Below, piece after piece: positions 6,638 through 54,255 of a stretch of DNA of 64,000 nucleotides; the first letter of the stretch is position 1; every line of letters starts with the position of its first letter. The DNA lies in the NCBI GenBank assembly GCA_030440445.1, contig CP098529.1, positions 1 to 64,000 of the forward strand, given 5' to 3'. Source of the stretch: Halomonas sp. KG2. Its GTDB lineage: Bacteria > Pseudomonadota > Gammaproteobacteria > Pseudomonadales > Halomonadaceae. The notes beneath the pieces were generated by a model. The model ran no database searches. It was not told where the DNA came from and saw only the letters and a program-made list of their open reading frames with translations. The position numbers and the translations under genes were made by a program.

Positions 6638-6642
6638 CCTCA

Positions 6643-32366: not shown

Positions 32367-32385
32367 TTTGTGACAGCGTGGAAAA

Positions 32386-32520
32386 CAGCTTTGAGCTTTA
32401 CGGGTGGGCGCTGGTCACTGATGTGCAATTGGATAGCAAATGAGCTTTTGATGATAATTCTAAATAAGGTTTTGAGGTTACCCGCTTTTGGTGCTTTGAT
32501 GATTTCATCATGACTGTATC
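32386..32520 (+). repeat. Duplicated leader flank of the hipBA insertion
   Basis: About 130 bases resembling 34186-34320: the Fic 3' end (TTTGAGCTTTACGGGTGGGC) and the nuclease signal-peptide start (MIILNKVLRLPAFGALMISS), stopped by TGA. So hipBA lies between two diverged direct copies of the same leader sequence. The same applies in mirror image at 53398-53532. Confidence 0.75.
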
Positions 32521-32539
32521 TAACCAGGAGAATGCTGTC

Positions 32540-33799
32540 TCATCTCTCAGAATAGCCCTCCAGCGCAAACGGATTTAGAAACTGCCTACCCCATAGAAAG
32601 TCACGATCGACCTGGCTTAGGTCAGCCTCATCGCAAACAGCATCCCAATAATCATGGATGATCGCAATCTGGTGATTGATGATTTCACGGGCCTGAGTCC
32701 GGCTAAGACCGAGCCGCTCTGCGGCTGCCAAACAGTGGATTAGCTGACTGCGACGTTCCTGGTCATACAACAGCATCGCCTGGGTGGCTTCGCCACCGGT
32801 ACGTGACTGCGGACAGATATCGTAGGCCGGAGTTAGTCGATAGTGCATACCATCCCAGAAGGCAGCATGATTACGTGCATGGTCGTCGGTATTTCCGCAA
32901 AGTACGTTGAAGACGATGCGGCTGAACAACTCGACCAGTGTTTTCCCCGGCTGGTTGAATTTAGATCGGATTCGATGGGCGAGATCTTCATAGCTGGCAT
33001 AGCGGGCCATCATCTCGTCCAGACCGAGCAGCGTGAGAGCAGAGAGCACAATGTGTCTCCCCCAACCATCAGCTGTCTTCATTCTGTCGAAGCGTTCAAT
33101 CAGCAGTACATCCTTGCCTAATGAGCGGGCCATCTTGATGGGCGCAACATCCAGCCCCGCCTGCTGGGCGAGCCGCATGGCGACAAATTCCGCCTTCACT
33201 ACGCTGTAAAGGTCGGTACTAGAAGAGAACTTTGCCACCAATTTGCGATCCTGATCGTTCAACAGAGCCTTAGGGCGGGCACCGCCGATACTGCTGCCAT
33301 GCTGAATGGCCAGGTCTAAGGCTGGGGGCAGCGGTTCTCCAGCCTCTACATACGCTGAGGCTTCTTGCAATTCATCCAAGGTGGCAACTTGGTTCTCTTG
33401 TGGTCGGTAGTCAGTGGGCGATTGCTGTAAATCTAACGCACCGATTCTATCCGAGCCAGATTCGAGCAGATAGACTAACTCATTGAAGTCGACACCATTA
33501 GCCTTATCGCCTTTTTGCCCCGTAAGACGGTTGATAATGACGCGTCGCCCCCAAGCGTCTGGTGAGGCGTCACGTAGGCAGGAAGGTAACGCACCGTCTA
33601 CTTTCTCCTGGTTTCCGGGACGAAGGGGGAGCTCTTCGGGGAATAGGCTGATCGCATCAGGGCGTGTAAGGTAACTACGACCATAGGTAAAGCGATAGTG
33701 GTCTTGATCATCGCGTTCGACAAGACCGGCGACCACTGGAAATGTCTGTCTGGGAAGCCAGATCCAAACGTAGGCGCGTCGACTAGAAATCATCATCAA
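32540..33799 (-). CDS. hipA: HipA-family toxin kinase (copy 1)
   Basis: 419 residues. The N-terminal subdomain (about 1-110) carries AWGRRVIINRL. The kinase core has GGARPK (172-177), KLVAKFSSSTD (187-197), catalytic loop NTDDHARNH (303-311) and the metal-binding YDICP (326-330), all conserved. HipA toxins phosphorylate aminoacyl-tRNA synthetases or similar targets and slow growth until neutralised by HipB. The start overlaps hipB by 17 bases, giving coupled translation. Identical to the copy at 52119-53378, so any mutation has not yet separated them. Confidence 0.92.
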   Translation of the reverse strand: MMMISSRRAYVWIWLPRQTFPVVAGLVERDDQDHYRFTYGRSYLTRPDAISLFPEELPLRPGNQEKVDGALPSCLRDASPDAWGRRVIINRLTGQKGDKANGVDFNELVYLLESGSDRIGALDLQQSPTDYRPQENQVATLDELQEASAYVEAGEPLPPALDLAIQHGSSIGGARPKALLNDQDRKLVAKFSSSTDLYSVVKAEFVAMRLAQQAGLDVAPIKMARSLGKDVLLIERFDRMKTADGWGRHIVLSALTLLGLDEMMARYASYEDLAHRIRSKFNQPGKTLVELFSRIVFNVLCGNTDDHARNHAAFWDGMHYRLTPAYDICPQSRTGGEATQAMLLYDQERRSQLIHCLAAAERLGLSRTQAREIINHQIAIIHDYWDAVCDEADLSQVDRDFLWGRQFLNPFALEGYSER

Positions 33800-34121
33800 T
33801 AGGCTCTTGTGGCTGGCGGTGAACCCGCTTGGGGAGCAATGTTAGCCGGTCTCGCTGGATCGTTTGTTCGCGGTTTAGTGTGTCCAGATCATTGGTGAAT
33901 AGCGAAACGCCGACCAACGCCGCAGCTTCGAAATAAGTTCCAATAGCCACTCGGGATGAGCCTTTGGCGACCTGACGGATAGTGACCACGCCAACACCAA
34001 CCCGATCAGCGAGCTCGTCGCGGGTCCACCCTTTATTGAGTCTACCCTCTTCGATCAGTCCGGCGAACAGACGCAGGGAGAGGGAGGCTTTAGGGCTGAG
34101 GGTAACATGCCGTGTTTTCAT
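33783..34121 (-). CDS. hipB: HipB-like antitoxin, XRE-type (copy 1)
   Basis: 112 residues. A helix-turn-helix at about 33-70 (KGWTRDELADRVGVGVVTIR, VAKGSSRVAIGTYFEAAALV) followed by a charged, disordered tail ending EPIDDDF. Binds the TCGACA-type operator in front of it and neutralises HipA. There is no Shine-Dalgarno; the ATG follows TGTCGAT of the operator directly, so repressor binding would also cover the start. Confidence 0.88.
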   Translation of the reverse strand: MKTRHVTLSPKASLSLRLFAGLIEEGRLNKGWTRDELADRVGVGVVTIRQVAKGSSRVAIGTYFEAAALVGVSLFTNDLDTLNREQTIQRDRLTLLPKRVHRQPQEPIDDDF

Positions 34122-34122
34122 A

Positions 34123-34170
34123 TCGACACTATAATATATATATCTTTTATTATCGACAATATAATGTCGA
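34123..34170 (-). promoter_or_regulatory. hipBA operator/promoter (copy 1)
   Basis: Three TCGACA/TGTCGA half-sites: an inverted pair spaced by six bases (34153-34170) and one touching the hipB start codon (34123-34128), around a TATAAT-like AT stretch. Confidence 0.75.
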
Positions 34171-34242
34171 TTTATTACATTTTTACCTTAGAGAACAACT
34201 TTGAGCCTTACTGGTGGGCGCTGGTCACTGATGGGTAATTGG

Positions 34243-35210
34243 ATGGCAGATGAGGTTTTGAGGTTAACTGCTTTTGGTTCTTTGATGATGTCATCATTTT
34301 CTGCCCAGGCAGATGTTGCGATCGTAACCTGTAACATTAAGCACATAGGGTGGATTTACGGTAAGGACTTCGCGACTTTGGGTGAGATAGGCAACAGTTT
34401 CGATTTGCTCGCTGTGCAAGAAGTGATGAGGTAACTGCTCCCCGCCCTAATGGGTGGGGCTTCCCTCTTCAACGGCTGCTACCGACAACGTGGCGGATTT
34501 ACGCGAGCTTCGATGGGCAAGTCCTTCAGCCTTCAACTTCAAGATACCTTGATGCTTGATCGTTGATGTCCCGGTCGTAACGTGTATGGCAGGTGGAGCG
34601 ACTACTGAGACGCTTAAAACTTATGTTCAGTGGCACCAGGCACCAGACTAGAACTGCGAAGAAGGGGCTGAAAATCTGCATCTTTCGTTGGAGCAGGCAT
34701 CGGGTGAACCTTGAGGATACGTGATGAGTCACCTGATCGGCCGCAGCAGCTAAAAAGAAGCGTATGTGTTTTTTGGGGTGAGAATCGTAAGTTTAAGCAT
34801 CCGGTGGAGACGCTGTGTTTTTCGACGGTGCTGGTGTCTTTTCATAGGAGCCGTACTCAGCGCTGTTTACCGATTGAGATACCAGCGAGAGCGATATATT
34901 TGCAATCGCCTACGTGCATATTCTGTATGGAGACAGTGTGCGCGACCGGCTGCCTATTGGCAGTGGTTTGGGTGAGGTAGCCTGTCCTGGTGTGCCTCGT
35001 ATACTGGCAGGTGACTTTAATCTTGATAGTGAGCACCTTTGGCTTTGACACGCTTTTGGATTTTGGATTTTGAGGCAGCATACGAGGATAGCAGAGGCGA
35101 TGTCGATGGTCTGCTCTGGGAATCACTTGATGCGCTCGTTACTGTCAGTGGCTAGAGTTACAACCGCGTAGAGGACATTACCTTTTCAGGGTTTGGCTTG
35201 CGATCTTTAA
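34243..35210 (+). pseudogene. Second copy of the EEP-family nuclease, heavily decayed
   Basis: MADEVLRLTAFGSLMMSSFS signal-like start, TCNIKHIGW, FDLLAVQEVM then TAA. Downstream, in shifting frames, are fragments equivalent to the 8.7-9.8 kb gene (VHILYGDSV-like, RILAGDFNLDSEH-like, AYEDSRGD, and the helix-hairpin-helix end ESLDALVTVSG). It lacks the 8-bp tandem repeat. The part up to 34856 belongs to the inverted repeat, the rest does not. Confidence 0.8.
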
Positions 35211-35289
35211 AGGATATATGGAAAGGGAAGAAGGACTAAAGGAAAGAAGAAAGACTCAAAAAAGTCTATCAATTACAGAAATTTAGCGA

Positions 35290-35545
35290 TAAAATCCGTC
35301 CAAATAATACATAGAAACCTGTCCGATTCGTACATAGAAACCCGTTCACTCCGTACATAGAACGTGGGTGCCTTGTCTTACTGTCCTGGGTAATCTGTAC
35401 AGAGCGTACATAGACCCGATCCTTCTTATTCGCTTTGGAGGCTTCAATCAGAAAGGGTTTATCCCCCGCGAGATGTTTCATGCTGCAAAATGTGTACAGA
35501 TCATACAAAGAAGAATCGACTGTGCTTCGCTACACTCGGTTCAAC
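35290..35545 (-). repeat. Degenerate second iteron array (vestigial origin)
   Basis: Minus-strand iteron units TTCTATGTACG..., at about 35308-35330, 35330-35351, 35352-35365, a fuller TCTATGTACGCTCTGTACAG at 35395-35414 and a weak one at 35490. The end GCTTCGCTACACTCGGTTC matches the repA leader near 8098. Fewer and weaker copies than at 8.1-8.6 kb, and no repA follows because an IS3 begins at 35546. Confidence 0.8.
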
Positions 35546-35553
35546 TGTAGTGG

Positions 35554-36378
<825 letters not shown>

Positions 36379-36422
36379 GTCACACAGTTTTTTTACCGGG
36401 TAGCTCGTCTTGAGTTTCTCGA

Positions 36423-36779
<357 letters not shown>

Positions 36780-36809
36780 TTAGGTGGCCAAATTCACTAT
36801 GCCACTACA

Positions 36810-36960
36810 TCGGTGACGGCATTAATGGTGCCGTTGGAAAGTTCGATATCATACAGTTCGGCAATATGAGCCCGGATGTCCTGATAGCTGTTGCCGAGCG
36901 CAAACAGGGCGATGATCTTGCGCTCCAGCTCATCGGTAAGATTGTAGATAATGACACACT
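36810..36960 (-). pseudogene. IS256-family transposase fragment
   Basis: Minus-strand LTDELERKIIALFALGNSYQ then DIRAHIAELYDIELSNGTIN, the helix-turn-helix region of IS256/mutator transposases. Only about 50 residues remain between an IS3 end and unrelated sequence. Confidence 0.7.
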
Positions 36961-37027
36961 GTGTAGAGCGGTAACGGCGGTGATACGCAACACATGCACA
37001 TTACTGCGTGTCGCTACGTTTAGGTAC

Positions 37028-37388
37028 TTAACGTGGATAAATGATGGCTGCGGTGATCATGAGTTTGACTAGATAGCCTGGGGCGGCCAGGCGAGATTCA
37101 CCACGGGCGCGCGCTGGGGCGTGGCCTGCGGGTACCCGTGCATCCCATACGGCATTCATTGCTTCAAAATCTTTCATGTCGGCTAGCCAGACGATGGCCT
37201 GCAGAATATGTTTAGGCGAAGAGCCTGCTTCTTTTAGTAGGCGCTCTACTTCGGCTAGAGCTTGGCGGGTTTGTTAGGGGGCGCTCGCCACATTTCCCTA
37301 CCCCTACTTGGCCTATAAGATAGAGCATGTTGCCATGCACGACAATTTGGCTCATGCGGGGGGAGGTGTTGTGGCGTTGAATGCACAT
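37028..37388 (-). pseudogene. ridA: RidA-family protein, frameshifted
   Basis: From ATG 37388: SQIVVHGNMLYLIGQV, a frameshift after GERP near 37283, then RQALAEVERLLKEAGSSPKH, ILQAIVWLADMKDFEAMNAV and LVKLMITAAI to the stop at 37028. RidA hydrolyses reactive enamine/imine intermediates made by PLP enzymes and amino-acid oxidases, and often neighbours DadA-like genes as here. One base was lost or gained in a G/C-run. Confidence 0.8.
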
Positions 37389-37412
37389 GGGTGATCCTGG
37401 TGGCTCTTGGTT

Positions 37413-38657
37413 TTAGAAACGGGCGGCGCTATAATCGTTAAGCCAGTCAGGAGCTTGGCCGCGTACGCACGCCGCTACAAGCTCACCGGTGGTGCCGGCT
37501 AAGGTGATGCCGAGGTGTTGGTGCCCGAAGGCGTGAATAACCCGGGAGTCGTAGCGGCTGGGGCCAATCACCGGCACACAGTCGGGTAGGGTGGGGCGCA
37601 TCCCCATCCATTGGTGGCTAACCGGGGCGTCAATATTCATCAGCTTACGTACCCGTTCTTCGATAAAGCGGATGCGTGCTGGGTTGGTGGGGGCGCGTAG
37701 CGAGGCAAGTTCTACGGTGCCTGCGGCGCGAAGGCGGCCGTTGGCCAGGGGGGTCATATAAAAGGCGCTTTCTACAGGGCAGGTGGGGCGCGTGAGCACT
37801 TCGCGGCCTAACTCAAACTCAACGTGGTAGCCTCGTTCCGTATCTAGTGGAATACGTTCGCCAAGCGTGGCGGCAAGTTTTGCTGACCAGGCACCTGCAG
37901 CTAATACAACGCGATCAGCCAAGAGCGTTTTCCCATCCTCACACTCAATATGCACACCGTCGTTGGCGGTGCGTAATCCGCGTGCGCGGCCTTTTAGAAT
38001 GCTGCCTTCCGAAAGTAGGGGCTGGGCGAGTGCCTGTATAAAGCCTTGTGTATCGCGGAGGTGGCACGAGTTTGGGAAGAGGACGCCCCCAACGCTTTTC
38101 CCCGCCATGGCGGGTTCTAGGGCTGCAACGCCGGCAGCGTTGAGTATCTCTTGCTCGACACCGAGCGAGCTGCGTAAAGCAATGCCCGCTTGCGCGCTTT
38201 TTAGCCCTTTTTCAGTGGTATAGGCGTATAGGCAGCCTTCATTGCGAATCAGCTCACGTGCTTGGGGTGCTGCTTCAAGCAGGGGGCCATAACCACTGAA
38301 AGTTTGCCCTAATAAGCGTGCAAGGCGCTGCGCATTTATCGTTGCGCAGCGTTTGTTACATTGGGCCATAAAGCGCAACAACCAGGGCATTAGCTCTGGA
38401 AGGCGCGTCCACTGAACCACGAAGGGAGAATTATTAGAGAACAGCAGGTTAGGCAACTGCGACCAAACAGAGGCATTGGCAACAGGGGTGCAACCGTACT
38501 CTGAAAGTGTGCTGGCGTTGCCATAGGAGCATTGACCGGCAATGTCCTCAGGTTCTAGCAGGACGACTTGGTGACCATCGCGGCGCAGCCATAGGGCGCA
38601 GGCAATACCTACGGCGCCACCGCCGATGACGATAATCTCATTGCGTGTTGGAGTCAT
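37413..38657 (-). CDS. FAD-dependent D-amino-acid dehydrogenase-like oxidase (DadA family)
   Basis: 414 residues. The dinucleotide-binding GGGAVGIACALWLRRDGHQV at about 12-31 with the ribose-binding Glu (LLEPEDIAGQCS) about 22 residues on; FAD-contacting C-terminal region MGMRPTLPDCVPVIG and HAFGHQHLGITLAGTTGELV. This is the DAO fold as in DadA. It would oxidise a D-amino acid or N-substituted amino acid to a keto acid at the membrane. Overlaps the MocR gene by 20 bases, so they share a transcript. Substrate inferred only from context. Intact. Confidence 0.88.
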   Translation of the reverse strand: MTPTRNEIIVIGGGAVGIACALWLRRDGHQVVLLEPEDIAGQCSYGNASTLSEYGCTPVANASVWSQLPNLLFSNNSPFVVQWTRLPELMPWLLRFMAQCNKRCATINAQRLARLLGQTFSGYGPLLEAAPQARELIRNEGCLYAYTTEKGLKSAQAGIALRSSLGVEQEILNAAGVAALEPAMAGKSVGGVLFPNSCHLRDTQGFIQALAQPLLSEGSILKGRARGLRTANDGVHIECEDGKTLLADRVVLAAGAWSAKLAATLGERIPLDTERGYHVEFELGREVLTRPTCPVESAFYMTPLANGRLRAAGTVELASLRAPTNPARIRFIEERVRKLMNIDAPVSHQWMGMRPTLPDCVPVIGPSRYDSRVIHAFGHQHLGITLAGTTGELVAACVRGQAPDWLNDYSAARF

Positions 38658-40065
38658 AAGAAAGCCTTGGTTGAGGGGGTGGACCGTTTCGAGACAACTC
38701 AGCGATGACCGTCAGCCCGTGGGTAAGCTGTTCACGGGTGGAGGCCGCAGAGAGGTTGATGCGTATGGCGTTAGAGGTGTTCTGGGGGGCGAGGACAAAT
38801 GCTGAGCCAGGGAGCACCGCTACCCCTTTGTTGAGGCACGCATTGCTGAAGTGGTGGTTTTGCCAACTGTCAGGCAGTTTCAGCCAGGCGTGGGGCGCTG
38901 TGGGGCCACTGTGTACGTCTAGGTCGCCCATTATTTGGCGGAGTATTGCTTGCCGTGCGCGTAATTCCTCACGCTGAACGACGATTAAATCGCGCACTTT
39001 GCCGCTTTCCATTAGTCGTGTTGCCACCAAGGCAGAAAGTGGCGCTGTACTCCAGCAATCTACGCGTAGGCTGGAGCTTAAATCGGTAACGAGGTCGGCG
39101 GGGGCGAGTATAAAGCCTATCCGTAGGCCGGGAGCCACGCATTTGGATAGCGAGGTTATATAAAGCGTTTGCTCAGGCAGGCTGCTGGCTAGGGGGGGAA
39201 TAGGCGTATCCAGCAGTGGCCGGTAGACATCATCTTCTATCAGCAGTACGCCCGCTGCTTCTATCACTGTTAACAGCTCGTTACGCCGTTCTTGGTCCAA
39301 GGTAACGGCCGTTGGGTTTTGTATGGAGCTAACGATGAAAACAGCACGAGGCGCGTGTTTGTTGCAGGCGTCTTGAAGCGCTTGCGGCACCATGCCCCGT
39401 TCGTCAGTACGCACGCCCTCAAGGTTTACATCCAGCGTGCGGCACAGGGCGGCAATCCCTTGGTAAGTAATGTCATCAGCCAGCACTGTTTCACCCGGTT
39501 CGACGATGGCGCGAAGCGCTAGCGCTAGGCCGTGCTGTGCCCCATCGCACATGATGACCTGTGAGGCGTTCGCTGTTAGCCCTTGCTGGCACAGCCAGGC
39601 GGCGGCAGCTTCACGCGCCCAGGTTGGCCCTTCGGAAGGGTGATAGTCCTTCATGGAAGAAAAGCGGGGGTCTAGCGGTAATTCGGGCAATAGTGCTGCG
39701 AGTACATGGTTATAGGCATCGGTAGCCGGGCGGTTAACGCTGAGATCGATGATGCCTGTTTCGTTAAGTGGTGCTGATTGGAATTGGGCTTCCTCTGAGC
39801 GATAGGCGGAAACACGAGTGCCGCGTCCGGGCCGGGTCTCGATCAGTTTATCGTCCTGTAGAATCGCCATGGCTCGAGTGACGGTGGAAACATTGACCTT
39901 TAAACGCTTCGCCAGCTCACGGTGCGGTGGAAGTTTTTCACCTAGCCCAATCTGGCCCGAGCGTATGGCGTTCGAAAGCGCTTGGGCTAGCTGGATATAG
40001 AGCGGTTCAGGGTGATTGAGGGAGCCAAGCTCCTTCTCTACTTCTGTAAGCAGAGTATCTAACAT
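38638..40065 (-). CDS. MocR-type regulator (GntR helix-turn-helix plus aminotransferase fold)
   Basis: 475 residues from MLDTLLTEVEKE (AAGGC ahead). GntR winged helix at about 20-85 (YIQLAQALSNAIRSGQIGLG, LAKRLKVNVSTVTRAMAILQ), then a class I aminotransferase-like domain with the PLP lysine in YITSLSKCVAPGLRIGFILA. MocR proteins sense an amino-acid-like ligand through PLP and control adjacent catabolic or transport genes. Here it lies between divergent dadA-like and TRAP genes, so the 40066-40237 gap is the probable operator. Confidence 0.9.
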   Translation of the reverse strand: MLDTLLTEVEKELGSLNHPEPLYIQLAQALSNAIRSGQIGLGEKLPPHRELAKRLKVNVSTVTRAMAILQDDKLIETRPGRGTRVSAYRSEEAQFQSAPLNETGIIDLSVNRPATDAYNHVLAALLPELPLDPRFSSMKDYHPSEGPTWAREAAAAWLCQQGLTANASQVIMCDGAQHGLALALRAIVEPGETVLADDITYQGIAALCRTLDVNLEGVRTDERGMVPQALQDACNKHAPRAVFIVSSIQNPTAVTLDQERRNELLTVIEAAGVLLIEDDVYRPLLDTPIPPLASSLPEQTLYITSLSKCVAPGLRIGFILAPADLVTDLSSSLRVDCWSTAPLSALVATRLMESGKVRDLIVVQREELRARQAILRQIMGDLDVHSGPTAPHAWLKLPDSWQNHHFSNACLNKGVAVLPGSAFVLAPQNTSNAIRINLSAASTREQLTHGLTVIAELSRNGPPPQPRLSYDSNTQ

Positions 40066-40237
40066 TGAAGTGCCTTTAGATGTATTGTGCTGCTTGTATT
40101 GACAAATAATATGCGTTTTGAATGAAAAAACCAAGATATTGAGGATTGATATTCACAATTTTCCATGATTGTATTGATTGTGTCGCCATACAATTAAACA
40201 TAATACTAACTAGACAACGATGGATCAGGAGAAGGTT
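40066..40237. promoter_or_regulatory. Divergent promoter region between MocR and TRAP genes
   Basis: AT-rich, with direct/inverted ATTGATTGTGTCG, TGTATTGACAAATAATATG and CAATACAATC-like repeats of the core TGTATTG (40085-40102, 40169-40184). Such repeats suit MocR binding. Confidence 0.5.
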
Positions 40238-41248
40238 ATGCAGCCTCTACGTAAATTCTTCGCTATTACGACGCTTGCGGCCGTGAGTATGAGTTCAGTC
40301 TACGCATATGCTGGGGATGTTTCGCTGCGTTTAACCCATATGTATCGTGCGGACTCGGACGCTGGGCAGGCAGCTCAGGCATTCGCTGATCAAGTCGAGG
40401 CGCGTAGCGATGGGCGTATTGATATCTCTGTGTATCCTTCTAGCCAACTTGGTGACTGGACGGAAACGCACGCTCTGCTTATGCAGGGTGCGGTCGATAT
40501 TGGCCTACAACCTCTTTCTACTAATTTTGATCGGCGCTTAGCGATTGCTTGGTTTCCTTACATTGCACCCACTTATGCGGAAGCTGAATCGGCCTACGAG
40601 CGTGATGGTTTTGCCTTCAATATCGTGGATGGGTTAATTGAGGAGCAGGGGTTACGCTTGCTGGGTGTGTTTGCCGATGGCATGGGCGGCGCGGGCTTTA
40701 CGAAAGAAGTGAATAACCCGGCTACGCCAGGCGAAGATAAGGATTTGCGAATTCGTGTATGGCCGGGCGGCACCACGCACCGCACTTTGATGGAGAACTT
40801 GGGCTACCAAGTGGCTACTATTCCGTGGGCTGAGCTGTACACCGGTATGCAAACGGGCGTTGTGGATGGTCAGATTGGTGGCTCTCCTGAAATGGCTTAC
40901 AGCAATTTCAAGGACATCACGAAGACTTGGGTTCAGTACAACGACCACTTAGAGCTGGGTTGGTTTGTCATGAACCAGCAGCGCCTAGCGTCGCTACCGG
41001 AATCTGACCAGCAATTGTTGGTAGATGTTGCCCAAGAGGTTTCTTCCCAACGCTTTGATGAGGTGGAAGCCGCCGATGAGCGACAGCTTGAAGCGCTTGA
41101 GGCAGAGGGCGTGAATGTTGTTCGTTTATCCACTGAGCAATTACAACAGTTAGCAACCTTTACCCGCGAGCAGGTGTGGCCAGACATTGGCGATGAGCTG
41201 GGTGACGACATGATGAGCGAGCTACGCACAGGCCTAGCGCTAGACTGA
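40238..41248 (+). CDS. dctP: TRAP transporter substrate-binding protein DctP
   Basis: 336 residues from MQPLRKFFAITTLAAVSMSS (AGGAGAAGG just ahead), with a Sec signal cut near AYAYAGD. Typical DctP text: QAFADQVEARSDGRIDISVY, PSSQLGD, EQGLRLLGVFADG, LRIRVWPGGTTHRTLMENLG and ELYTGMQTGVVDGQIGGSPE, where the conserved Arg contacts the ligand carboxylate. It delivers an organic acid or amino acid to the membrane permease encoded next. Intact. Confidence 0.95.
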   Translation: MQPLRKFFAITTLAAVSMSSVYAYAGDVSLRLTHMYRADSDAGQAAQAFADQVEARSDGRIDISVYPSSQLGDWTETHALLMQGAVDIGLQPLSTNFDRRLAIAWFPYIAPTYAEAESAYERDGFAFNIVDGLIEEQGLRLLGVFADGMGGAGFTKEVNNPATPGEDKDLRIRVWPGGTTHRTLMENLGYQVATIPWAELYTGMQTGVVDGQIGGSPEMAYSNFKDITKTWVQYNDHLELGWFVMNQQRLASLPESDQQLLVDVAQEVSSQRFDEVEAADERQLEALEAEGVNVVRLSTEQLQQLATFTREQVWPDIGDELGDDMMSELRTGLALD

Positions 41249-41276
41249 GCTGACGAAGCCTTAGCGAGGTAACAAT

Positions 41277-43089: not shown

Positions 43090-43297
43090 TAGGAAACTTG
43101 TGTCCGTTAAAGGAAGAGTATACAGACAGAGTTGGTTTGAATCACCGGATCAAGCCTGAGCGGTTATTGACCATTAGACACCCGGCGATAATGGATAGCG
43201 GAAATTTCAGTAATCTTTGGGCCTTTGTTTAGCCGGGTAGGCTTGCTCCGAATGGATTTGTGGAGAACTTAAATGATAAGGGCGGATGCAGATTCTG
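43090..43297. other. Intergenic after dctM, no gene seen
   Basis: No clear terminator hairpin or frame. Ends at the IS30 remnant. Confidence 0.4.
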
Positions 43298-44940: not shown

Positions 44941-45870
<930 letters not shown>

Positions 45871-46299
45871 CGTAAGTTGGGATATTTGGACTTTAAGCCA
45901 CAAACCGAGACTACAGATCAACTCGAATTCCAGAACAGCCTGTGGGTAGCACCCGAGAAAAGGGACATTACCGTTATACAACTATATGAATTAAAACAAT
46001 TATCCTGACATAAACAAGTAAAAGAAAGAGTGAAAAAATTCGCCCAAGTTGGACACATATACCAAGCACGTTCAAGCAGCCTGAACATTGGCCTGATGGC
46101 GCTCCCACTAAAGCGGTCTTTAACGGCAAAGCGACAGGCTTCTGACAGCCGGTTGGCAGCACACCGGAAGGGTGCTTGGATTCCCAATGATCCAAACCAT
46201 AAGCCACCTAGCCAAACTCATTTCTGGGATGGCACGAAATGCAGGCCAGATGCCACTAACTGCTTACCCCTGGAAGACCAAATACATGAGTGACGGGGC
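45871..46299. other. No supported gene
   Basis: Short frames on both strands (up to 89 codons) lack start signals and family resemblance. Confidence 0.4.
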
Positions 46300-47220
46300 T
46301 TACGCGACTGATTCTGCGCCAATGCAGTAGCGATGCACACCGATGGACGGTAAATAAGGCTCTACGTCTATTCTCGCATCTTTACGTCGCTTGCGACGTT
46401 GTTCCATATCCGGTTCTGAGGGCGGTGTTCGAAGCGCAGGTAGCAATCCTGTTCGTGGATCGGGTGGCACAATAATAGGCACAGACGAATTGAACGCGAG
46501 CGGGCGGGGGGTAGGTTGTTCCTCAACAGAAGCAAAGTAAACGTTCGCCCGAAGCTGAGGGGTTTGCTTGCGTACCAGCGCCAGCGGCTCACTCGCTGGA
46601 AGACTGGCCAGCTTTTTCAACTGAATCGCGATGTGTGGCTGATCGGCGCCGAGCTTAATTAGCCGCTTTTCGGCCTCCGCGATGCTAATTTTTACAATCG
46701 AACGCCCAGAAACCTGCCACCCAACGCCGATATGCCGGATCGGATGATCGAGAACATGCACCGCTCGTATCGTCTTCTTCAGGCTCAACCTGGCAAGCCC
46801 TGCTGTGTTCAAGTGCTGGCGCAAATACTGGAACTGGCTGCCAACTTCTGCTTTGAGTAACGATTGCGAGTTGTGTTGCGGCTCAGTCTGCTTGATCTCA
46901 TCGGCAATCGCCCGAAACATAGCCTTTTGCTTATTCAACCCACCGAATTTTTCTCTCAGTGTTTCGGAAGCTGCAATGACGCCTGCATGCTTGGATGTCA
47001 ACACACCCGATGTGCCTGCCTCATGCCACATATCCATCAGGACACACCGTAGCCAATCGGAATTGGCATGCGCAGCCGTCATGGCCCAGGCCTGCGGACG
47101 TTCTCTCTCGTACTGTGCACACACGTCGTCAATGGCCTTCACCAATCGACCAAAACACTCACCCGCTTGATGAATGAGCCTGAAGCGTCGGTAGTCTTTA
47201 TCCAGGGTGTCAGTTGTCAT
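46300..47220 (-). CDS. tus: Tus-like replication terminus-binding protein
   Basis: 306 residues with GGAGACACTT before the ATG. Two stretches line up with E. coli Tus as I remember it: LNTAGLARLSLKKTIRAVHV plus GWQVSGRSIVKISIAEAEKR corresponds to the Tus region around LNAYRTLTV...GWANKHIIKNLHRDEVL, and IQLKKLASLPASEPLALVRK followed by LRANVYF to [20 protein letters not shown]...IARVWY. The last block contains core DNA-contact strands. Tus bound to Ter arrests the replicative helicase from one side; plasmid-encoded homologues occur. The C-terminal 60 residues are Pro/Arg-rich. Intact. Confidence 0.75.
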   Translation of the reverse strand: MTTDTLDKDYRRFRLIHQAGECFGRLVKAIDDVCAQYERERPQAWAMTAAHANSDWLRCVLMDMWHEAGTSGVLTSKHAGVIAASETLREKFGGLNKQKAMFRAIADEIKQTEPQHNSQSLLKAEVGSQFQYLRQHLNTAGLARLSLKKTIRAVHVLDHPIRHIGVGWQVSGRSIVKISIAEAEKRLIKLGADQPHIAIQLKKLASLPASEPLALVRKQTPQLRANVYFASVEEQPTPRPLAFNSSVPIIVPPDPRTGLLPALRTPPSEPDMEQRRKRRKDARIDVEPYLPSIGVHRYCIGAESVA

Positions 47221-47383
47221 GAAGTGTCTCCGCTAAAGCAGTGCGTATACCTATATCAGGATAGCAAGTTAACACTAATGTTCGTTTTTAATACTCTATA
47301 TATAATCATATATAGTGTTTTTAGTGTATTGCGGCATATCATGCAGTTTCATAAGTCACAAAAGTGCCTCGAAACTTATCCTT

Positions 47384-47662
47384 TTAAAAGCTACTATCAA
47401 TCCACTCCCCAGCCTGCTGAACGAGCATCATGAAATGATTCCGAAGATCGTCGCAGTCGTGGGGCATAATCGCATCAAAGTTCTCGCATTCTCTGACAGA
47501 CGCAGCACACAATCCGAGATGTTTTACCATGTGCCTTACCGCGGCTGACGTAGGTTTATGGCGAAGCAGTTCCTCTGTGGCAAAAAGACGATCGCTAGTG
47601 GCGGCCTCAAGTTTCATGCCTATTTCGACCTGGGCTAGATATTCCTTTGAAAACCCGCTCAT
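47384..47662 (-). CDS. Hypothetical protein, 92 aa
   Basis: Begins MSGFSKEYLAQVEIGMKLEA (GGGAAATAATAT ahead). Helical, with HMVKHLGLCAASVRECENFD. Located between the integrase and the Tus-like gene on the same strand. No family recognised. Confidence 0.5.
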   Translation of the reverse strand: MSGFSKEYLAQVEIGMKLEAATSDRLFATEELLRHKPTSAAVRHMVKHLGLCAASVRECENFDAIMPHDCDDLRNHFMMLVQQAGEWIDSSF

Positions 47663-47755
47663 ATATTATTTCCCATGTTTGGATAAATATTTTGTAAACA
47701 TATTCGTTTGATTTAATTGGATATGTCACCATTATTGACCACCAAGTTAGCAGCG

Positions 47756-48898
47756 TTATTCAGGGCGGTAGCCGAACCGGCCAGACTGTAAACGCGCCGC
47801 TTTTTGACGGTGACTCTTGGTTTCATCGAAGACATAACGCTCGGTTGTCACAACAGACGCATGGCCTAGTATTACCTGAATTTCCCGTATCGACATACCG
47901 GCTTCCCGCAAATCCGTCGCGCAGGTGCGCCGCAAGTCATGGGGGGCCAACTTCAGTTCATCGGGCAACATCAGCCGTAGGCGTTCCAGACGATTATTGA
48001 CGCTACGAAGGCTTAACGGGGTTTTAAGATAGTCGTTTGAAGGTGCCTTCTGTTTTACCCAAATGGGATTAAATAAATAACCTGGAGTACGGCCACGGTA
48101 CTTATCCAGATATTCATTTAAGCGCCATACTACACAGTCTGGTAACGTCAGCGAGCGCTGCTTTTGGCCTTTACCTACGACCGTGATCTCATGGCTGATG
48201 AAATCAATGTCCTTGAGCTGGATGCTAACTGTTTCGGCACGCCGAAGCCCAATGGATGCCATCATCGCAATCATCAAGCCATCACGAAATGCCCTAGCAG
48301 TGGGCTCTTGGTCACACAAATCAAGTAGTGCCCTAATTGTGCCTGCACTATGGGCAGTCCCGGCGCGTTTAGCGTGAGAATAACGGGCCGCCTTGATCTG
48401 CTTAATACGATCCAGGGTGGCATGGCTGATCTGATCTAGCATCCAGGCTTCTGTGGCTATACCGCGAATTACCGCACGAACGGCATTCCGTTTGGCTGGG
48501 GATTGGCCGGAATCACGGTAGGTTGCCAGTATCTCGCTGACCACATCAGGCGTCAGGGTTGACCAGTCTACATAATCATAGGGGAATGCCTGGTTGGGAT
48601 GTTGAGCCCGACCGTCATTGTTGGGTGCGCTTAACTTTGGTGGCTTGGGTGCGCCGAGAGCTTTGGTGGCAATTTCGTTAATGAGACTCCGCTTTGAAGT
48701 GACGCTGGCAACGGATTCCTGGTTACGCAAATGCCGGTGAGCAGCATTGCTTCCGCGAGGGAATGGTTGGCTAAGGTCAAATATCACCCGAACGGGCGGT
48801 TCCTCGTAATCCATCACACCCGTTGCCGGAAATGAAGGTGTGATTGTCGTCATTGAGTGCTGCGATGTGACGATAATGTGTTTGTTGTCATTTTGCAT
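47756..48898 (-). CDS. Tyrosine recombinase / integrase
   Basis: 380 residues. N-terminal core-binding SAM-like domain at about 120-180; catalytic domain with Arg in IGLRRAETVS, Lys in VVGKGQKQRSL, HxxR in APHDLRRTCATDLR, His in ILGHASVVTTERYV and the nucleophile Tyr in the same stretch. All six catalytic positions are present. It could resolve plasmid multimers or integrate an element. No att-like repeat is obvious nearby. Intact. Confidence 0.93.
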   Translation of the reverse strand: MQNDNKHIIVTSQHSMTTITPSFPATGVMDYEEPPVRVIFDLSQPFPRGSNAAHRHLRNQESVASVTSKRSLINEIATKALGAPKPPKLSAPNNDGRAQHPNQAFPYDYVDWSTLTPDVVSEILATYRDSGQSPAKRNAVRAVIRGIATEAWMLDQISHATLDRIKQIKAARYSHAKRAGTAHSAGTIRALLDLCDQEPTARAFRDGLMIAMMASIGLRRAETVSIQLKDIDFISHEITVVGKGQKQRSLTLPDCVVWRLNEYLDKYRGRTPGYLFNPIWVKQKAPSNDYLKTPLSLRSVNNRLERLRLMLPDELKLAPHDLRRTCATDLREAGMSIREIQVILGHASVVTTERYVFDETKSHRQKAARLQSGRFGYRPE

Positions 48899-49565
48899 GG
48901 TGGTATCCCATAGAAATACGTTGGCTGATCCGAGTATGCAATAACCGCTATGCTATAAGACCGTAATCAACATTGAGGCTCAAAGCTGAAATGGATTTAG
49001 CCCTATTCAAGTCAGCACAAAAAAACCCATGCTGATGCTCCTGTCATAATTGCATTTAATATATCTTAAAGGTAGTTAATGAATTAGAAAAGGGCAAACG
49101 GCCTGCTACTACCTGGCGAAACTTCTGCTTTGATGCTCTATTTAGAAAACGGTCTTTTATAATACCCTTGCTTTTACGTGTTGCGGTCTAGCTAAGCTAC
49201 TGCCCACGCCACAGGTAAGAAAATGCGCTCATGGCCTCAAAAAAACAGTCACTCGATTAAGTAAAAACTTCAATAATTATGAATATAATCATTGCTTTAA
49301 ATGTATTTCTTAGTTTTTATGAGACTCTGTACTTAAAATCTGTCTTTTTGGGCATACCTACCCCTGAACATTTTGCGTACAGCAGCCAAAAATACTGGCT
49401 GCATCACGCAATCAGGGGCTAACAGTTCTTTTGGGAGAGGCTATTTCAACATCTTGCCGCGCTCTTTAAATGGTGGCTTGGCCTGATCCTGATCGTCCCG
49501 AACTCCCATTGATTTGCACGCATCACATGCCCAAAGACGTGTCTTCTTTTTTGAGAGGATGCTAG
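48899..49565. other. No supported gene
   Basis: About 670 AT-rich bases upstream of the integrase. No frame with a start signal. Probably holds the integrase promoter near 48900-48960. Confidence 0.5.
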
Positions 49566-49782
49566 AAGTTGTTCTGGTCAATAAAACCGGACACATTAAT
49601 TTGCTAATTTCTCATACTCTGCTGGAGCCTGATCACCATTCGATGAATGCAGTCGCTCCAGGTTGTAATACTTCATGTAGGCCTCGACATCCCGTTTCAT
49701 GTGAGCCCGTGTTGGCTGGTGTACTTTAAGTAGCCAATCGTGTTTCAGACTGCCGAAAAATCGCTCAACAACCGCGTTGACG
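49566..49782 (-). pseudogene. IS3-family OrfB 3' end
   Basis: Minus-strand NAVVERFFGSLKHDWLLKVH (catalytic Glu) and MKRDVEAYMKYYNLERLHSS to a stop, then the outer end TGGTCAATAAAACCGGACAC. Cut off exactly where the IS110 element starts. Confidence 0.8.
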
Positions 49783-49790
49783 CTCCTATG

Positions 49791-50849
49791 TCAAATATTC
49801 TCCCGTAATTTTCCAAGATCCCTCATTATCAGTGGGAATAATTCTCGAACAATATATCGTTTCAGGCAGCGATGAATTTCCTTGGACGTAAGTCCTTCCG
49901 CTGTTCGTCGGTCTACATAGGCACGGGTTCGGGGATCGCTTCGCATCCTAACCATAGCTATCGTCCATAACGCATTGTTAGCCGCTCGGCTGCCACCTCG
50001 GTTTAGTCGATGCCTTGTCGTCTTGCCTGAGGAGGCGGGTAGAGGGTTTACACCGCAGAGCGAAGCTAAGGCTGCTTCATTCTTCAGGCGTTCAGGGTTG
50101 TCTCCGGCAACGGACAAAAGAATAGCCGCAGTATGAGGACCTACGCCAAAGCGACTCCGCAGCTGTTGCGCATGCTTTTGGGTAAGTGCCTCCAGTTGCT
50201 TATCAAATTTTTCTAATTCGGCAGCTAACGTCAGCCATCGCTTGGCAAGTGACCTGAGCGTTGAGGTCAACGCCTGCAAGAGAACACTATCTCCTAGGTG
50301 ACGGATCTTTGCACAAGCCTTCACGCAGTCGCCTGTTTTCGGTCTCCATAGCTTCTCGCGGATGTCCTGGGGCGCACTCACCAGCAAGGCGCGTAATTGA
50401 TTGATCGCTTGCGTCTTCGCCTTTACGGCGCTGCGCCTGGCGACGGATATGATGCGCATCGCCTCACAGGCACCTGATTGCTGTTTAGGTATGGCGGTCG
50501 CTATACCTGACAACACCGCTCTAGCTGCACTTTCGGCATCCGTCGGGTCGGACTTGCCCTGCTGTCGTCGCTTGGCTCTATCAGGCCGATTCACTTCAAG
50601 AACCGTGATTCCATTATCGATCAGGAAACGGCAAAGTCCTGCACCATAGGTTCCTGTCCCTTCGATACCTGCACGAGTCAGGGTGCCAAAAGACGAAGCC
50701 CAGCTTAGCAAGTCAAGGTAACCTGCCGAACTTGCGGAAACGGATCGAGTTCCAAGTAACTGACCTATCTCGCTGATTACAGCACCTGCATGGACATCCA
50801 GGTGTGTATCTACACCTAGAATAACTTCCTGTGGCGATTCAAGTTTCAT
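49791..50849 (-). CDS. IS110-family transposase (DEDD)
   Basis: 352 residues from MKLESPQEVILGVDTHLDV (GGAG eight bases ahead). RuvC-like residues in GVDTHLDVHAGAV (Asp), IEGTGTYGAGLCRFL (Glu), KSDPTDAESAARAV (DxxD). The Tnp domain has AALASLCGVNPLPASSGKTT (catalytic serine) and HRLNRGGSRAANNALWTIAM. No stops or frameshifts, unlike the sister copies here. IS110 enzymes are guided by a structured RNA that pairs with target and donor DNA. Confidence 0.93.
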   Translation of the reverse strand: MKLESPQEVILGVDTHLDVHAGAVISEIGQLLGTRSVSASSAGYLDLLSWASSFGTLTRAGIEGTGTYGAGLCRFLIDNGITVLEVNRPDRAKRRQQGKSDPTDAESAARAVLSGIATAIPKQQSGACEAMRIISVARRSAVKAKTQAINQLRALLVSAPQDIREKLWRPKTGDCVKACAKIRHLGDSVLLQALTSTLRSLAKRWLTLAAELEKFDKQLEALTQKHAQQLRSRFGVGPHTAAILLSVAGDNPERLKNEAALASLCGVNPLPASSGKTTRHRLNRGGSRAANNALWTIAMVRMRSDPRTRAYVDRRTAEGLTSKEIHRCLKRYIVRELFPLIMRDLGKLRENI

Positions 50850-50858
50850 GGGATACAC

Positions 50859-51060
50859 TCCTTAGTGGTGGCGTATTCCCAATCTCAATCGCAGGACAGG
50901 ACACTCACGGCGCAGAACAAAGCTCCTATTAGGTCACAAACGCTGAGCCCGGGAAGCCTCGGGGAACATCAATACTGGCCGACAGGTCAACGCGAAGGCA
51001 GTAAAGCCAATCCCAGCACGGGTCAGGCCAATATGATGTTCACAAGTATAGTAGACTGAG
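50859..51060 (-). ncRNA. Candidate bridge RNA region of the IS110 element
   Basis: Non-coding leader between element end and transposase start, GC-rich with several potential stems (for example CCCGGGAAGCCTCGGGG around 50948-50964 and TCGCGTTGACC/GGTCAACGCGA-type pairing near 50982). In IS110-group elements this leader is transcribed as the bridge RNA. Exact ends unknown. Confidence 0.5.
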
Positions 51061-51063
51061 TGT

Positions 51064-51675
51064 ACGGCTCCTATGAAAAGACACCAGCACCGTCGAAAAA
51101 CACAGCGTCTCCACCGGATGCTTAAACTTACGATTCTCACCCCAAAAAACACATACGCTTCTTTTTAGCTGCTGCGGCCGATCAGGTGACTCATCACGTA
51201 TCCTCAAGGTTCACCCGATGCCTGCTCCAACGAAAGATGCAGATTTTCAGCCCCTTCTTCGCAGTTCTAGTCTGGTGCCTGGTGCCACTGAACATAAGTT
51301 TTAAGCGTCTCAGTAGTCGCTCCACCTGCCATACACGTTACGACCGGGACATCAACGATCAAGCATCAAGGTATCTTGAAGTTGAAGGCTGAAGGACTTG
51401 CCCATCGAAGCTCGCGTAAATCCGCCACGTTGTCGGTAGCAGCCGTTGAAGAGGGAAGCCCCACCCATTAGGGCGGGGAGCAGTTACCTCATCACTTCTT
51501 GCACAGCGAGCAAATCGAAACTGTTGCCTATCTCACCCAAAGTCGCGAAGTCCTTACCGTAAATCCACCCTATGTGCTTAATGTTACAGGTTACGATCGC
51601 AACATCTGCCTGGGCAGAAAATGATGACATCATCAAAGAACCAAAAGCAGTTAACCTCAAAACCTCATCTGCCAT
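51064..51675 (-). pseudogene. Third copy of the EEP-family nuclease, 5' part only
   Basis: Same sequence as 34243-34854 in mirror image: signal-like start, TCNIKHIGW, FDLLAVQEVMR then a stop, followed by decayed text. It is cut off by the IS110 element. Confidence 0.8.
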
Positions 51676-51747
51676 CCAATTACCCATCAGTGACCAGCGC
51701 CCACCAGTAAGGCTCAAAGTTGTTCTCTAAGGTAAAAATGTAATAAA

Positions 51748-51795
51748 TCGACATTATATTGTCGATAATAAAAGATATATATATTATAGTGTCGA
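51748..51795 (+). promoter_or_regulatory. hipBA operator/promoter (copy 2)
   Basis: TCGACA-N6-TGTCGA at 51748-51765 and TGTCGA at 51790-51795, directly before the hipB ATG at 51797. Mirror image of 34123-34170. Confidence 0.75.
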
Positions 51796-51796
51796 T

Positions 51797-52135
51797 ATGA
51801 AAACACGGCATGTTACCCTCAGCCCTAAAGCCTCCCTCTCCCTGCGTCTGTTCGCCGGACTGATCGAAGAGGGTAGACTCAATAAAGGGTGGACCCGCGA
51901 CGAGCTCGCTGATCGGGTTGGTGTTGGCGTGGTCACTATCCGTCAGGTCGCCAAAGGCTCATCCCGAGTGGCTATTGGAACTTATTTCGAAGCTGCGGCG
52001 TTGGTCGGCGTTTCGCTATTCACCAATGATCTGGACACACTAAACCGCGAACAAACGATCCAGCGAGACCGGCTAACATTGCTCCCCAAGCGGGTTCACC
52101 GCCAGCCACAAGAGCCTATTGATGATGATTTCTAG
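51797..52135 (+). CDS. hipB: HipB-like antitoxin, XRE-type (copy 2)
   Basis: 112 residues, identical to the product of 33783-34121. Complete, with its own operator, so this arm can also express the antitoxin. The last 17 bases overlap hipA. Confidence 0.88.
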   Translation: MKTRHVTLSPKASLSLRLFAGLIEEGRLNKGWTRDELADRVGVGVVTIRQVAKGSSRVAIGTYFEAAALVGVSLFTNDLDTLNREQTIQRDRLTLLPKRVHRQPQEPIDDDF

Positions 52136-53378
52136 TCGACGCGCCTACGTTTGGATCTGGCTTCCCAGACAGACATTTCCAGTGGTCGCCGGTCTTGTCG
52201 AACGCGATGATCAAGACCACTATCGCTTTACCTATGGTCGTAGTTACCTTACACGCCCTGATGCGATCAGCCTATTCCCCGAAGAGCTCCCCCTTCGTCC
52301 CGGAAACCAGGAGAAAGTAGACGGTGCGTTACCTTCCTGCCTACGTGACGCCTCACCAGACGCTTGGGGGCGACGCGTCATTATCAACCGTCTTACGGGG
52401 CAAAAAGGCGATAAGGCTAATGGTGTCGACTTCAATGAGTTAGTCTATCTGCTCGAATCTGGCTCGGATAGAATCGGTGCGTTAGATTTACAGCAATCGC
52501 CCACTGACTACCGACCACAAGAGAACCAAGTTGCCACCTTGGATGAATTGCAAGAAGCCTCAGCGTATGTAGAGGCTGGAGAACCGCTGCCCCCAGCCTT
52601 AGACCTGGCCATTCAGCATGGCAGCAGTATCGGCGGTGCCCGCCCTAAGGCTCTGTTGAACGATCAGGATCGCAAATTGGTGGCAAAGTTCTCTTCTAGT
52701 ACCGACCTTTACAGCGTAGTGAAGGCGGAATTTGTCGCCATGCGGCTCGCCCAGCAGGCGGGGCTGGATGTTGCGCCCATCAAGATGGCCCGCTCATTAG
52801 GCAAGGATGTACTGCTGATTGAACGCTTCGACAGAATGAAGACAGCTGATGGTTGGGGGAGACACATTGTGCTCTCTGCTCTCACGCTGCTCGGTCTGGA
52901 CGAGATGATGGCCCGCTATGCCAGCTATGAAGATCTCGCCCATCGAATCCGATCTAAATTCAACCAGCCGGGGAAAACACTGGTCGAGTTGTTCAGCCGC
53001 ATCGTCTTCAACGTACTTTGCGGAAATACCGACGACCATGCACGTAATCATGCTGCCTTCTGGGATGGTATGCACTATCGACTAACTCCGGCCTACGATA
53101 TCTGTCCGCAGTCACGTACCGGTGGCGAAGCCACCCAGGCGATGCTGTTGTATGACCAGGAACGTCGCAGTCAGCTAATCCACTGTTTGGCAGCCGCAGA
53201 GCGGCTCGGTCTTAGCCGGACTCAGGCCCGTGAAATCATCAATCACCAGATTGCGATCATCCATGATTATTGGGATGCTGTTTGCGATGAGGCTGACCTA
53301 AGCCAGGTCGATCGTGACTTTCTATGGGGTAGGCAGTTTCTAAATCCGTTTGCGCTGGAGGGCTATTCTGAGAGATGA
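52119..53378 (+). CDS. hipA: HipA-family toxin kinase (copy 2)
   Basis: 419 residues, identical to 32540-33799, with all kinase motifs intact (GGARPK, NTDDHARNH, YDICP). Having two identical toxin-antitoxin operons means loss of either arm alone would not expose the cell to unneutralised toxin. Sequence identity suggests recent duplication or ongoing gene conversion. Confidence 0.92.
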   Translation: MMMISSRRAYVWIWLPRQTFPVVAGLVERDDQDHYRFTYGRSYLTRPDAISLFPEELPLRPGNQEKVDGALPSCLRDASPDAWGRRVIINRLTGQKGDKANGVDFNELVYLLESGSDRIGALDLQQSPTDYRPQENQVATLDELQEASAYVEAGEPLPPALDLAIQHGSSIGGARPKALLNDQDRKLVAKFSSSTDLYSVVKAEFVAMRLAQQAGLDVAPIKMARSLGKDVLLIERFDRMKTADGWGRHIVLSALTLLGLDEMMARYASYEDLAHRIRSKFNQPGKTLVELFSRIVFNVLCGNTDDHARNHAAFWDGMHYRLTPAYDICPQSRTGGEATQAMLLYDQERRSQLIHCLAAAERLGLSRTQAREIINHQIAIIHDYWDAVCDEADLSQVDRDFLWGRQFLNPFALEGYSER

Positions 53379-53544
53379 GACAGCATTCTCCTGGTTAGAT
53401 ACAGTCATGATGAAATCATCAAAGCACCAAAAGCGGGTAACCTCAAAACCTTATTTAGAATTATCATCAAAAGCTCATTTGCTATCCAATTGCACATCAG
53501 TGACCAGCGCCCACCCGTAAAGCTCAAAGCTGTTTTCCACGCTG

Positions 53545-54255
53545 TCACAAAGCAGCGTCAACGAAAGGATCGTAATCGCTGGTATAGTGCGCAGTATCCA
53601 ACGCTTCGTAGTAAGCTGATCGCTGCTCTACCTTGATCAGGGCGGCACGGAATCCTGTTTTCATCAGCTCAAGGTCACGATAGAACCGACCTTCTTCCAT
53701 CTTGGAGCCATCGCTACAGGTAGCTACGTCCTTTAACCCAAGGTCGATGCCGACAGCTCCCTGCCCAGTAGATGGCTTGACCTCTACGTCAACTGCGACG
53801 TTGAAGTACCAGCGGCCCAGGCTGTCTTCGTTGAAGGATCCTGAGCGGAATTTGTATTTCGACAGGCCGTAGCTATCCCAGACCTTGAAATGGTTGCCGT
53901 TGTGGAATACCTGCCCATTCTTCCACTTGGCCGCGCCGGTATTGACCGGAATCCAGCCAAGTGAGCGTCTCACACCCCGAGACTTACGCCACTGTAGGCG
54001 AGTCTTCTTGAATTGCTTGCGACGGACGACGTATTCGGCGGCAACACACTGCAAGGTCTGGCTGTGCAGGCCGAGGTCCTTGCCGGCACCTTTGGTATAG
54101 GGGTGCATGTCGTAGGCGGACAGAAACAGACCATTCTCCCGAATGGTTCGGGATGACAGTTCGTTCAAGTAGTTCTTCACGCTACGAGCCATGCGGTTCA
54201 GCTCTGATGCGTGTTTGTCCTTCACTCTGACCTTGAGGGTCTTGGTCTGTTTCAT
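53545..54255 (-). pseudogene. tnpB: TnpB truncated and fused to a Fic fragment
   Basis: The N-terminal 195 residues are TnpB: MKQTKTLKVRVKDKHASELN, HSQTLQCVAAEYVVRRKQFK, RuvC-I GAVGIDLGLKDVATCSDGSK. Then, after FYRDLE, the text becomes LMKTGFRAALIKVEQRSAYY and EALDTAHYTSDYDPFVD, the C-terminal part of the Fic protein at 9.85-10.0 kb. The join lies in the shared GAGCTGATGA. RuvC-II, RuvC-III and the zinc finger are missing, so no nuclease activity is expected. Confidence 0.88.

What the first reader, a model, noticed from the sequence alone, without database searches (positions are those of the whole stretch)
32367..53551. Perfect 2.49-kb inverted repeats, each with a full hipBA, enclose a 16.2-kb segment
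Seen: arms 32367-34856 and 51062-53551 pair with a constant coordinate sum of 85918, and both encode identical HipA and HipB. Inference: homologous recombination between the arms would flip the 16.2 kb between them, which carries the second origin, the TRAP/amino-acid cassette, Tus-like gene and integrase. The orientation of a Tus-Ter barrier relative to the live origin would change with each flip. Two identical toxin-antitoxin copies at the borders would also select against loss of the whole structure.
Basis: partly seen in the sequence, partly recalled or inferred. Interest (0 to 1): 0.8.

Follow-up and report, generated by a model that had tools for sequence, protein, structure and literature searches.

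The report
Plasmid segment flanked by inverted toxin-antitoxin copies
A salt-loving bacterium's plasmid carries two identical, mirror-image copies of a toxin-antitoxin region around a 16-kb block, and comparison with a related plasmid suggests that the block has been turned round relative to its ancestral order; this is an ordinary kind of rearrangement, but the block also holds a gene with the predicted fold of a replication-stopping protein.

Summary
Arms 32367-34856 and 51062-53551 are exact 2,490-nt inverted repeats, each with an open hipBA, around 16,205 nt; the genome holds no other full copy. The window is part of a 98,093-bp contig that closes in frame, probably a circular Vreelandella/Halomonas plasmid. 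It looks like a fusion of two related plasmids; the arm is backbone of the second, whose rep gene is missing and whose origin is degenerate. A hipBA-less locus in the same plasmid and in a relative (G154:C49) shows the ancestral order origin - arm - right outer flank. In the window that order is split between the two arms; flipping the 16.2 kb restores it. So one arm is probably a recent inverted duplicate, and the block stands inverted relative to ancestry: by recombination across the arms, during the duplication, or by assembly error. Continued flipping is plausible but unshown. The 'Tus-like' gene is supported by predicted fold, but no Ter site was found, so the fork-barrier idea is untested. 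The second origin is a relic. Interest moderate; a new member of a known kind.

The parts
32367..34856 (+). Arm A of the perfect inverted repeat (2490 nt)
51062..53551 (-). Arm B, reverse complement of arm A, 100%
34857..51061 (.). 16,205-nt enclosed segment; inverted relative to the linkage seen in G154:C49
32540..33799 (-). hipA copy A (419 aa, kinase-type toxin)
   Evidence: Pfam HipA_C, Couple_hipA; dN/dS 0.07-0.11
33783..34121 (-). hipB copy A (112 aa, HTH antitoxin)
   Evidence: Pfam HTH_3; dN/dS 0.03-0.10
51797..52135 (+). hipB copy B, identical
52119..53378 (+). hipA copy B, identical
32381..32457 (+). 77-nt imperfect direct repeat on one side of hipBA (86% to 34191-34267); one copy only in hipBA-less G154:C49 and at 9840-9916
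34191..34267 (+). Second copy of the 77-nt direct repeat, other side of hipBA
34857..35542 (-). Ancestral flank of the arm: origin remnant of the second plasmid, 4 iterons, no rep gene beside it
   Evidence: homologous to 8096-9454 and to G154:C49 up to 7310
53552..53670 (+). Ancestral flank of the arm's other end, continuous with it in G154:C49 and at 9931-10048
31895..32352 (-). Flank of arm A: fructosamine-kinase fragment in two frames, its first part (profile positions 1-86) missing at the arm border
   Evidence: PF03881 positions 138-241 and 87-135; frames
49781..51061 (-). IS110-family element whose end coincides with the inner border of arm B
   Evidence: 91% to the pHAL1 element, match ending at 51062; transposase NF033542
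35546..36809 (-). IS3-family element next to the origin remnant, where a rep gene would be expected
46300..47220 (-). Protein with predicted Tus (replication terminator) fold, 306 aa
   Evidence: Foldseek/VIA top 4 hits are E. coli Tus; relatives named so
47756..48898 (-). XerC-like tyrosine recombinase, 380 aa
49046..49078 (-). dif-like imperfect palindrome upstream of the recombinase gene, also in G154:C48 and G194:C3; single in this genome
6784..8067 (-). Rep-like protein of the first replicon, next to 13 iterons (named by position; no family match)
   Evidence: 98% in G154:C49, 81% in G194:C3; no usable family

Best explanation
The plasmid looks like a fusion of two related plasmids. The arm is a piece of the second plasmid's backbone, beside its origin, that had earlier gained a hipBA gene pair between short direct repeats. 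This piece was recently duplicated in inverse orientation; the extra copy lies between a truncated kinase-gene fragment and the end of an IS110 element. Recombination across the identical arms (RecA-type, inferred) has then turned the 16.2-kb block, so that the two ancestral neighbours of the arm now sit on different arms. Further flipping is expected from the geometry but not shown. hipBA is probably a working addiction module present twice; it is a passenger of the duplication, not the cause of the inversion.
For: Exact arms. The hipBA-less paralogue in the plasmid and G154:C49 give the ancestral order. In flipped order the five aligned pieces (90 columns or more) of the right arm and flanks run in one order over G154:C49 7184-5403; in window order the right arm matches only up to its inner border. 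Arms identical, also in 908 non-hipBA bases, while the 77-nt repeats inside an arm differ by 14%: hipBA gain old, arm duplication or homogenisation recent. Arm B's inner border falls on the IS110 end. hipBA frames open, dN/dS 0.03-0.11 against 9 loci, 8 of them distinct. Contig closes in frame and paralogous NRPS sequence runs on across the join.
Against: No reads: neither both orientations nor coverage could be seen. The order may have been inverted at the moment of duplication, without later exchange. The comparison rests on one outside contig with the hipBA-less locus (G154) plus the internal paralogue; G194 has another gene at the site. The event that made the second copy is not identified. 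A 100% repeat elsewhere in C2 stops exactly at the contig end (identity falls from 100 to 57 per 100 bases), which leaves some doubt about repeat handling in this assembly.
Confidence: 0.58

Rival explanations
1. The segment is mis-oriented (or an arm wrongly duplicated) in the assembly: the true plasmid has only the flipped, ancestral order.
For: The flipped order is the ancestral one; a perfect 2.5-kb inverted repeat is a classic place for such an error (general knowledge); an exact repeat elsewhere in C2 ends exactly at the contig end.
Against: 4 contigs in all; C2 closes in frame, and repeats of 2.6 and 3.3 kb were placed in the same contig, which suggests long reads, but the sequencing method was not visible. 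Detrended GC-skew amplitude is a little larger in window order (1897) than flipped (1502), a weak hint for the window order.
Confidence: 0.17
2. Duplication and inversion came about in one step, for instance through a replicative or IS110-associated rearrangement, and the block has not flipped since.
For: Inner border of arm B lies exactly at the IS110 end, and the IS3 half expected on that side is missing. An IS110-family recombinase with reprogrammed bridge RNA can invert DNA in a reporter (PMC11208160, passages seen).
Against: No target-site duplication and no terminal inverted repeats at the arm ends by eye; the other border of the extra copy is a kinase-gene fragment, not an IS end; IS110 relatives seen in pHAL1 and at 5908-5943 sit in IS3 transposase sequence, not in the arm.
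Confidence: 0.19
3. A selected switch: flipping reverses a Tus-Ter fork barrier relative to the live origin, and twin hipBA copies keep the structure in place.
For: Tus-fold gene inside the block; open hipBA under purifying selection at both borders.
Against: No Ter site identified; second origin is a relic; none of the 14 closest named hipA loci shows a second full copy in the stretch held.
Confidence: 0.04
4. The inversion is made by the plasmid's own XerC-like recombinase acting on two sites.
For: A XerC-like gene and a conserved dif-like site lie in the segment.
Against: Only one such site in the whole genome at up to 3 mismatches.
Confidence: 0.02

Closest known systems
Flip/flop inversion between homogenised 4-kb inverted repeats on Saccharomyces chromosome XIV (PMC9731477, abstract and outline seen)
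   Same: Near-identical inverted repeats with genes in them enclose a block of similar size (24 kb) that exists in two orientations
   Different: Both orientations were observed there within the genus; here one assembly only, and the duplication looks recent
HipAB that stabilises a composite genomic island in Shewanella putrefaciens (PMC8978831, abstract and one results section read)
   Same: A hipBA pair on a mobile, composite element; there its deletion allowed loss of the island, and it stabilised a test plasmid
   Different: Here two identical copies as inverted arms; function inferred from sequence only
Tus (DNA replication terminator protein) of E. coli
   Different: Plasmid-borne second copy in this genome; no Pfam Ter match itself; Ter sites unknown
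IS110-family elements with bridge RNA (PMC11208160, passages seen)
   Same: Transposase NF033542; the pHAL1 relative sits in repeated sequence (IS3 pieces)
   Different: In this copy one target half is replaced by the arm; the bridge RNA was not looked for

Membership tests
Inversion isomers driven by long inverted repeats | Long, highly identical inverted repeats around unique DNA | tested here: met
   2490 nt, 100%, 16,205 nt apart
Inversion isomers driven by long inverted repeats | Both orientations present in the population | not testable with these tools
   No reads; comparative order only
Inversion isomers driven by long inverted repeats | Evidence that the block has been inverted | tested here: inconclusive
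   Inverted relative to G154:C49 and the internal paralogue, but assembly error and one-step origin are not excluded
HipBA type II toxin-antitoxin | HipA kinase domain and N-terminal domain | tested here: met
   PF07804 and PF13657 above cut-off; aligns to HipT(Lp) and HipA chains
HipBA type II toxin-antitoxin | HTH antitoxin gene directly upstream | tested here: met
   PF01381 above cut-off; the ORFs as listed overlap by 17 nt
HipBA type II toxin-antitoxin | Toxicity of HipA neutralised by HipB | not testable with these tools
   Bench test needed
Composite or replicative transposon | Terminal inverted repeats or IS copies at the arm ends, target-site duplication | tested here: not met
   By eye no TSD and no TIR at the junctions; of the four flanks only 51061 is an IS end
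Site-specific tyrosine invertase system | Two recombination sites in inverse orientation | tested here: not met
   One dif-like site in the genome, up to 3 mismatches
Tus family | Pfam Ter (PF05472) profile match | tested here: not met
   No match for the protein itself at E up to 10; of 7 proteins scanned (itself and 6 relatives) only P0028 matches, above cut-off
Tus family | Tus fold | tested here: met
Tus family | Binds Ter and blocks forks in one direction | not testable with these tools
   Binding cannot be computed; pattern searches found no Ter motif

The most novel reading that the evidence does not exclude
The block is a reversible switch: a plasmid-borne Tus-like terminator and its (unknown) Ter sites, together with a Xer-like resolution site, change polarity relative to the single live origin each time the arms recombine, and the twin hipBA copies penalise loss of the whole arrangement.
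Probability: 0.05. Interest if true: 0.75.

Novelty: new member of a known kind. Interest (0 to 1): 0.4.

Why it matters
It is a case of a toxin-antitoxin module duplicated as the arms of an inverted repeat on a plasmid, with an outgroup that fixes the ancestral order, so inversion history can be read from sequence. The enclosed block holds a Tus-fold gene next to a Xer-like recombinase gene and a dif-like site, also together on two other contigs of the genus, one of which carries a related Rep-like gene. If Ter sites are found, the effect of inversion on fork traps in plasmids becomes testable.

Tried and rejected
Pfam, NCBIfam and PHROGs gave no usable family for the Tus-like protein or the Rep-like protein; a sequence search of solved structures with the Tus-like protein gave one chance hit at E 1.7 and with its profile nothing; the fold search settled it. 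A Ter motif was sought in three ways: sequence shared upstream of three plasmid-type tus genes (1 exact and 2 weaker matches in the window; 28 of 100 shuffles reach 3; script version), an E. coli-like core recalled from memory (33 matches, 39 expected; only one upstream region of 12 held any core tried), and the shared sequence in the whole genome (12 matches against 15 for the reversed control): nothing usable. GC skew in both orders: amplitude 1897 in window order, 1502 flipped; too weak to decide. PLSDB: the arm in distant mode matched 308 records, none over 80% of it, the 20 listed rows all under hipA or unannotated; bases 1-25000 and 32000-56900 in near mode matched 33 and 592 records, none over 80%, and the listed rows (20 of each) are IS elements or unannotated stretches that align to them. 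So no other strain with the block was seen. The arm as a transposon was dropped. In one search the arm was compared with 33 loci; of the 80 named hipA loci the 14 closest were used. In one search pieces under 90 columns were dropped. Literature searches were used for comparison only; I claim nothing about what is not in print.
Full report
What is there. The window is bases 1-64,000 of contig C2 (98,093 bases) of a 4-contig genome. The two ends of C2 join in frame inside one open NRPS reading frame (the ORF 85859-98044 has condensation, AMP-binding and carrier domains), and paralogous NRPS sequence runs on across the join, so C2 is most likely a complete circular plasmid. A reservation: an exact 2578-nt repeat in C2 stops exactly at the contig end, where identity drops from 100 to about 57 per 100 bases. 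Relatives place the plasmid in Vreelandella/Halomonas (G194:C3 has the length of the Vreelandella massiliensis contig that carries protein P0005). The two arms are identical over 2490 nt and are the only full copies in the genome.

Anatomy of the arm. In arm A coordinates: 32367-32511, a backbone piece with a 77-nt repeat; 32540-34121, hipA and hipB; 34191-34430, the second 77-nt repeat and more backbone; about 34431-34655, a short insert whose relatives are scattered over many Halomonadaceae genomes; 34656-34856, backbone again. The first replicon holds the same backbone without hipBA and without the short insert at 9455-9930, and so does G154:C49. hipBA itself is found in the family: 11 of the 250 genomes searched (its own is one of the 250 and is not among the 11) have it at nearly full length, 72-84% identical (only the two best candidates per genome were scored). 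Against 9 loci (8 distinct), dN/dS is 0.07-0.11 for hipA and 0.03-0.10 for hipB, all frames open (dS exceeds 1 in some rows and is then imprecise). The pair is therefore probably maintained as working genes.

Two plasmids in one. The first replicon has a Rep-like gene (6784-8067; 98% in G154:C49) and 13 iterons; region 6636-11886 is 92% identical to G154:C49. The second set, 75-86% identical to the same locus, has 4 iterons at the same threshold, and an IS3-family element lies where the rep gene should be; no second homologue of the Rep-like protein was found in the genome. So the 'second origin' is a remnant. The tus-like and recombinase genes are 72-77% identical to those of G154:C48, in the range of the second set and unlike the first, so they probably came with the second plasmid (inference).

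Orientation. Call the arm's four neighbours a (to 32366), b (from 34857), c (to 51061) and d (from 53552). In G154:C49 and in the first replicon, b and d flank one and the same locus. In the window b is on arm A and d on arm B. Turning the block round in silico gives b-arm-d, whose five aligned pieces of 90 columns or more then run in one order over G154:C49 7184-5403, whereas in window order arm B matches only up to its inner border. The block therefore stands inverted relative to the ancestral linkage. The other pair, a and c, are not neighbours of the locus in those relatives: c is the end of an IS110 element and a is a fructosamine-kinase fragment in two frames that lacks its first part. 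So b-arm-d is most simply the original and a-arm-c the duplicate.

How the duplicate arose is not settled. The junctions show, by eye, neither target-site duplication nor terminal repeats. The IS110 copy has IS3 transposase sequence on its other side; in pHAL1 the element is flanked by IS3-like pieces on both sides, so here one IS3 half seems to have been lost and replaced by the arm. An IS110-linked event is possible. The arms are identical also in 908 non-hipBA bases, while the 77-nt repeats inside one arm differ by 14%: the duplication, or the last homogenisation, is recent and the gain of hipBA old.

Does it flip? Homologous exchange between such arms is expected to invert the block (established knowledge; a homogenised inverted repeat does so in yeast, PMC9731477, abstract seen). 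The plasmid's own XerC-like recombinase is an unlikely agent: its conserved dif-like site (49046-49078) is single in the genome. Reads would decide, and would also exclude a mis-oriented assembly, a rival that I take seriously.

hipBA twice. A HipAB stabilises an island and a test plasmid in other bacteria (PMC8978831, one results section read). Here two identical copies should compensate for each other, so loss of one arm would not be penalised; only loss of both would be (inference). Of the 14 closest named hipA loci none has a second full copy in the stretch held; one, L071, has an extra partial match of 273 bases.

Verdict. Observation confirmed; interpretation partly supported. A new member of a known kind, interest 0.4.

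Noticed in passing
window 46300-49078: A Tus-fold gene, a XerC-like recombinase gene and a dif-like site lie together, also on G154:C48 (L152) and G194:C3 (L153): a possible plasmid termination and dimer-resolution module.
   Followed up: partly
L143-L151 and the places: A Tus-like homologue occurs in 80 of 82 genomes of the genus searched; in the nine loci L143-L151, with the more distant copies (35-39% identical), a short gene that looks like yacG (name recalled) stands just upstream in the DNA printed.
   Followed up: partly
L006/L007 (C2 79533-98093): Two long direct repeats in the NRPS region: 79533-82790 and 90620-93877 (99.94%), 82743-85320 and 95516-98093 (100%, stopping exactly at the contig end).
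   Followed up: partly
window 49781-51061, 5908-5943; L027: IS110 elements whose ends sit at about the same conserved stretch (around GNCWDN) of IS3-family transposase sequence.
   Followed up: partly
window 34431-34655 and 51263-51487: A short insert in the arm; a part of it (about 170 nt) recurs in many Halomonadaceae genomes at 65-92% identity.
   Followed up: no
window 32381-32457 and 34191-34267; L055 10027-11262: hipBA lies between 77-nt imperfect direct repeats, single in hipBA-less relatives; in G194 a 411-aa DUF4236 protein gene occupies about the same place, so this may be an insertion hot spot.
   Followed up: partly
window 53708-54753: An IS200/IS605-like element (TnpA and a short TnpB-like ORF) begins shortly beyond arm B's outer flank; relatives of the same extent in several genomes of the genus.
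   Followed up: no
window 44732-44940 and 63305-63520: A shorter inverted repeat, 93.5-96% identical, which could also pair.
   Followed up: no
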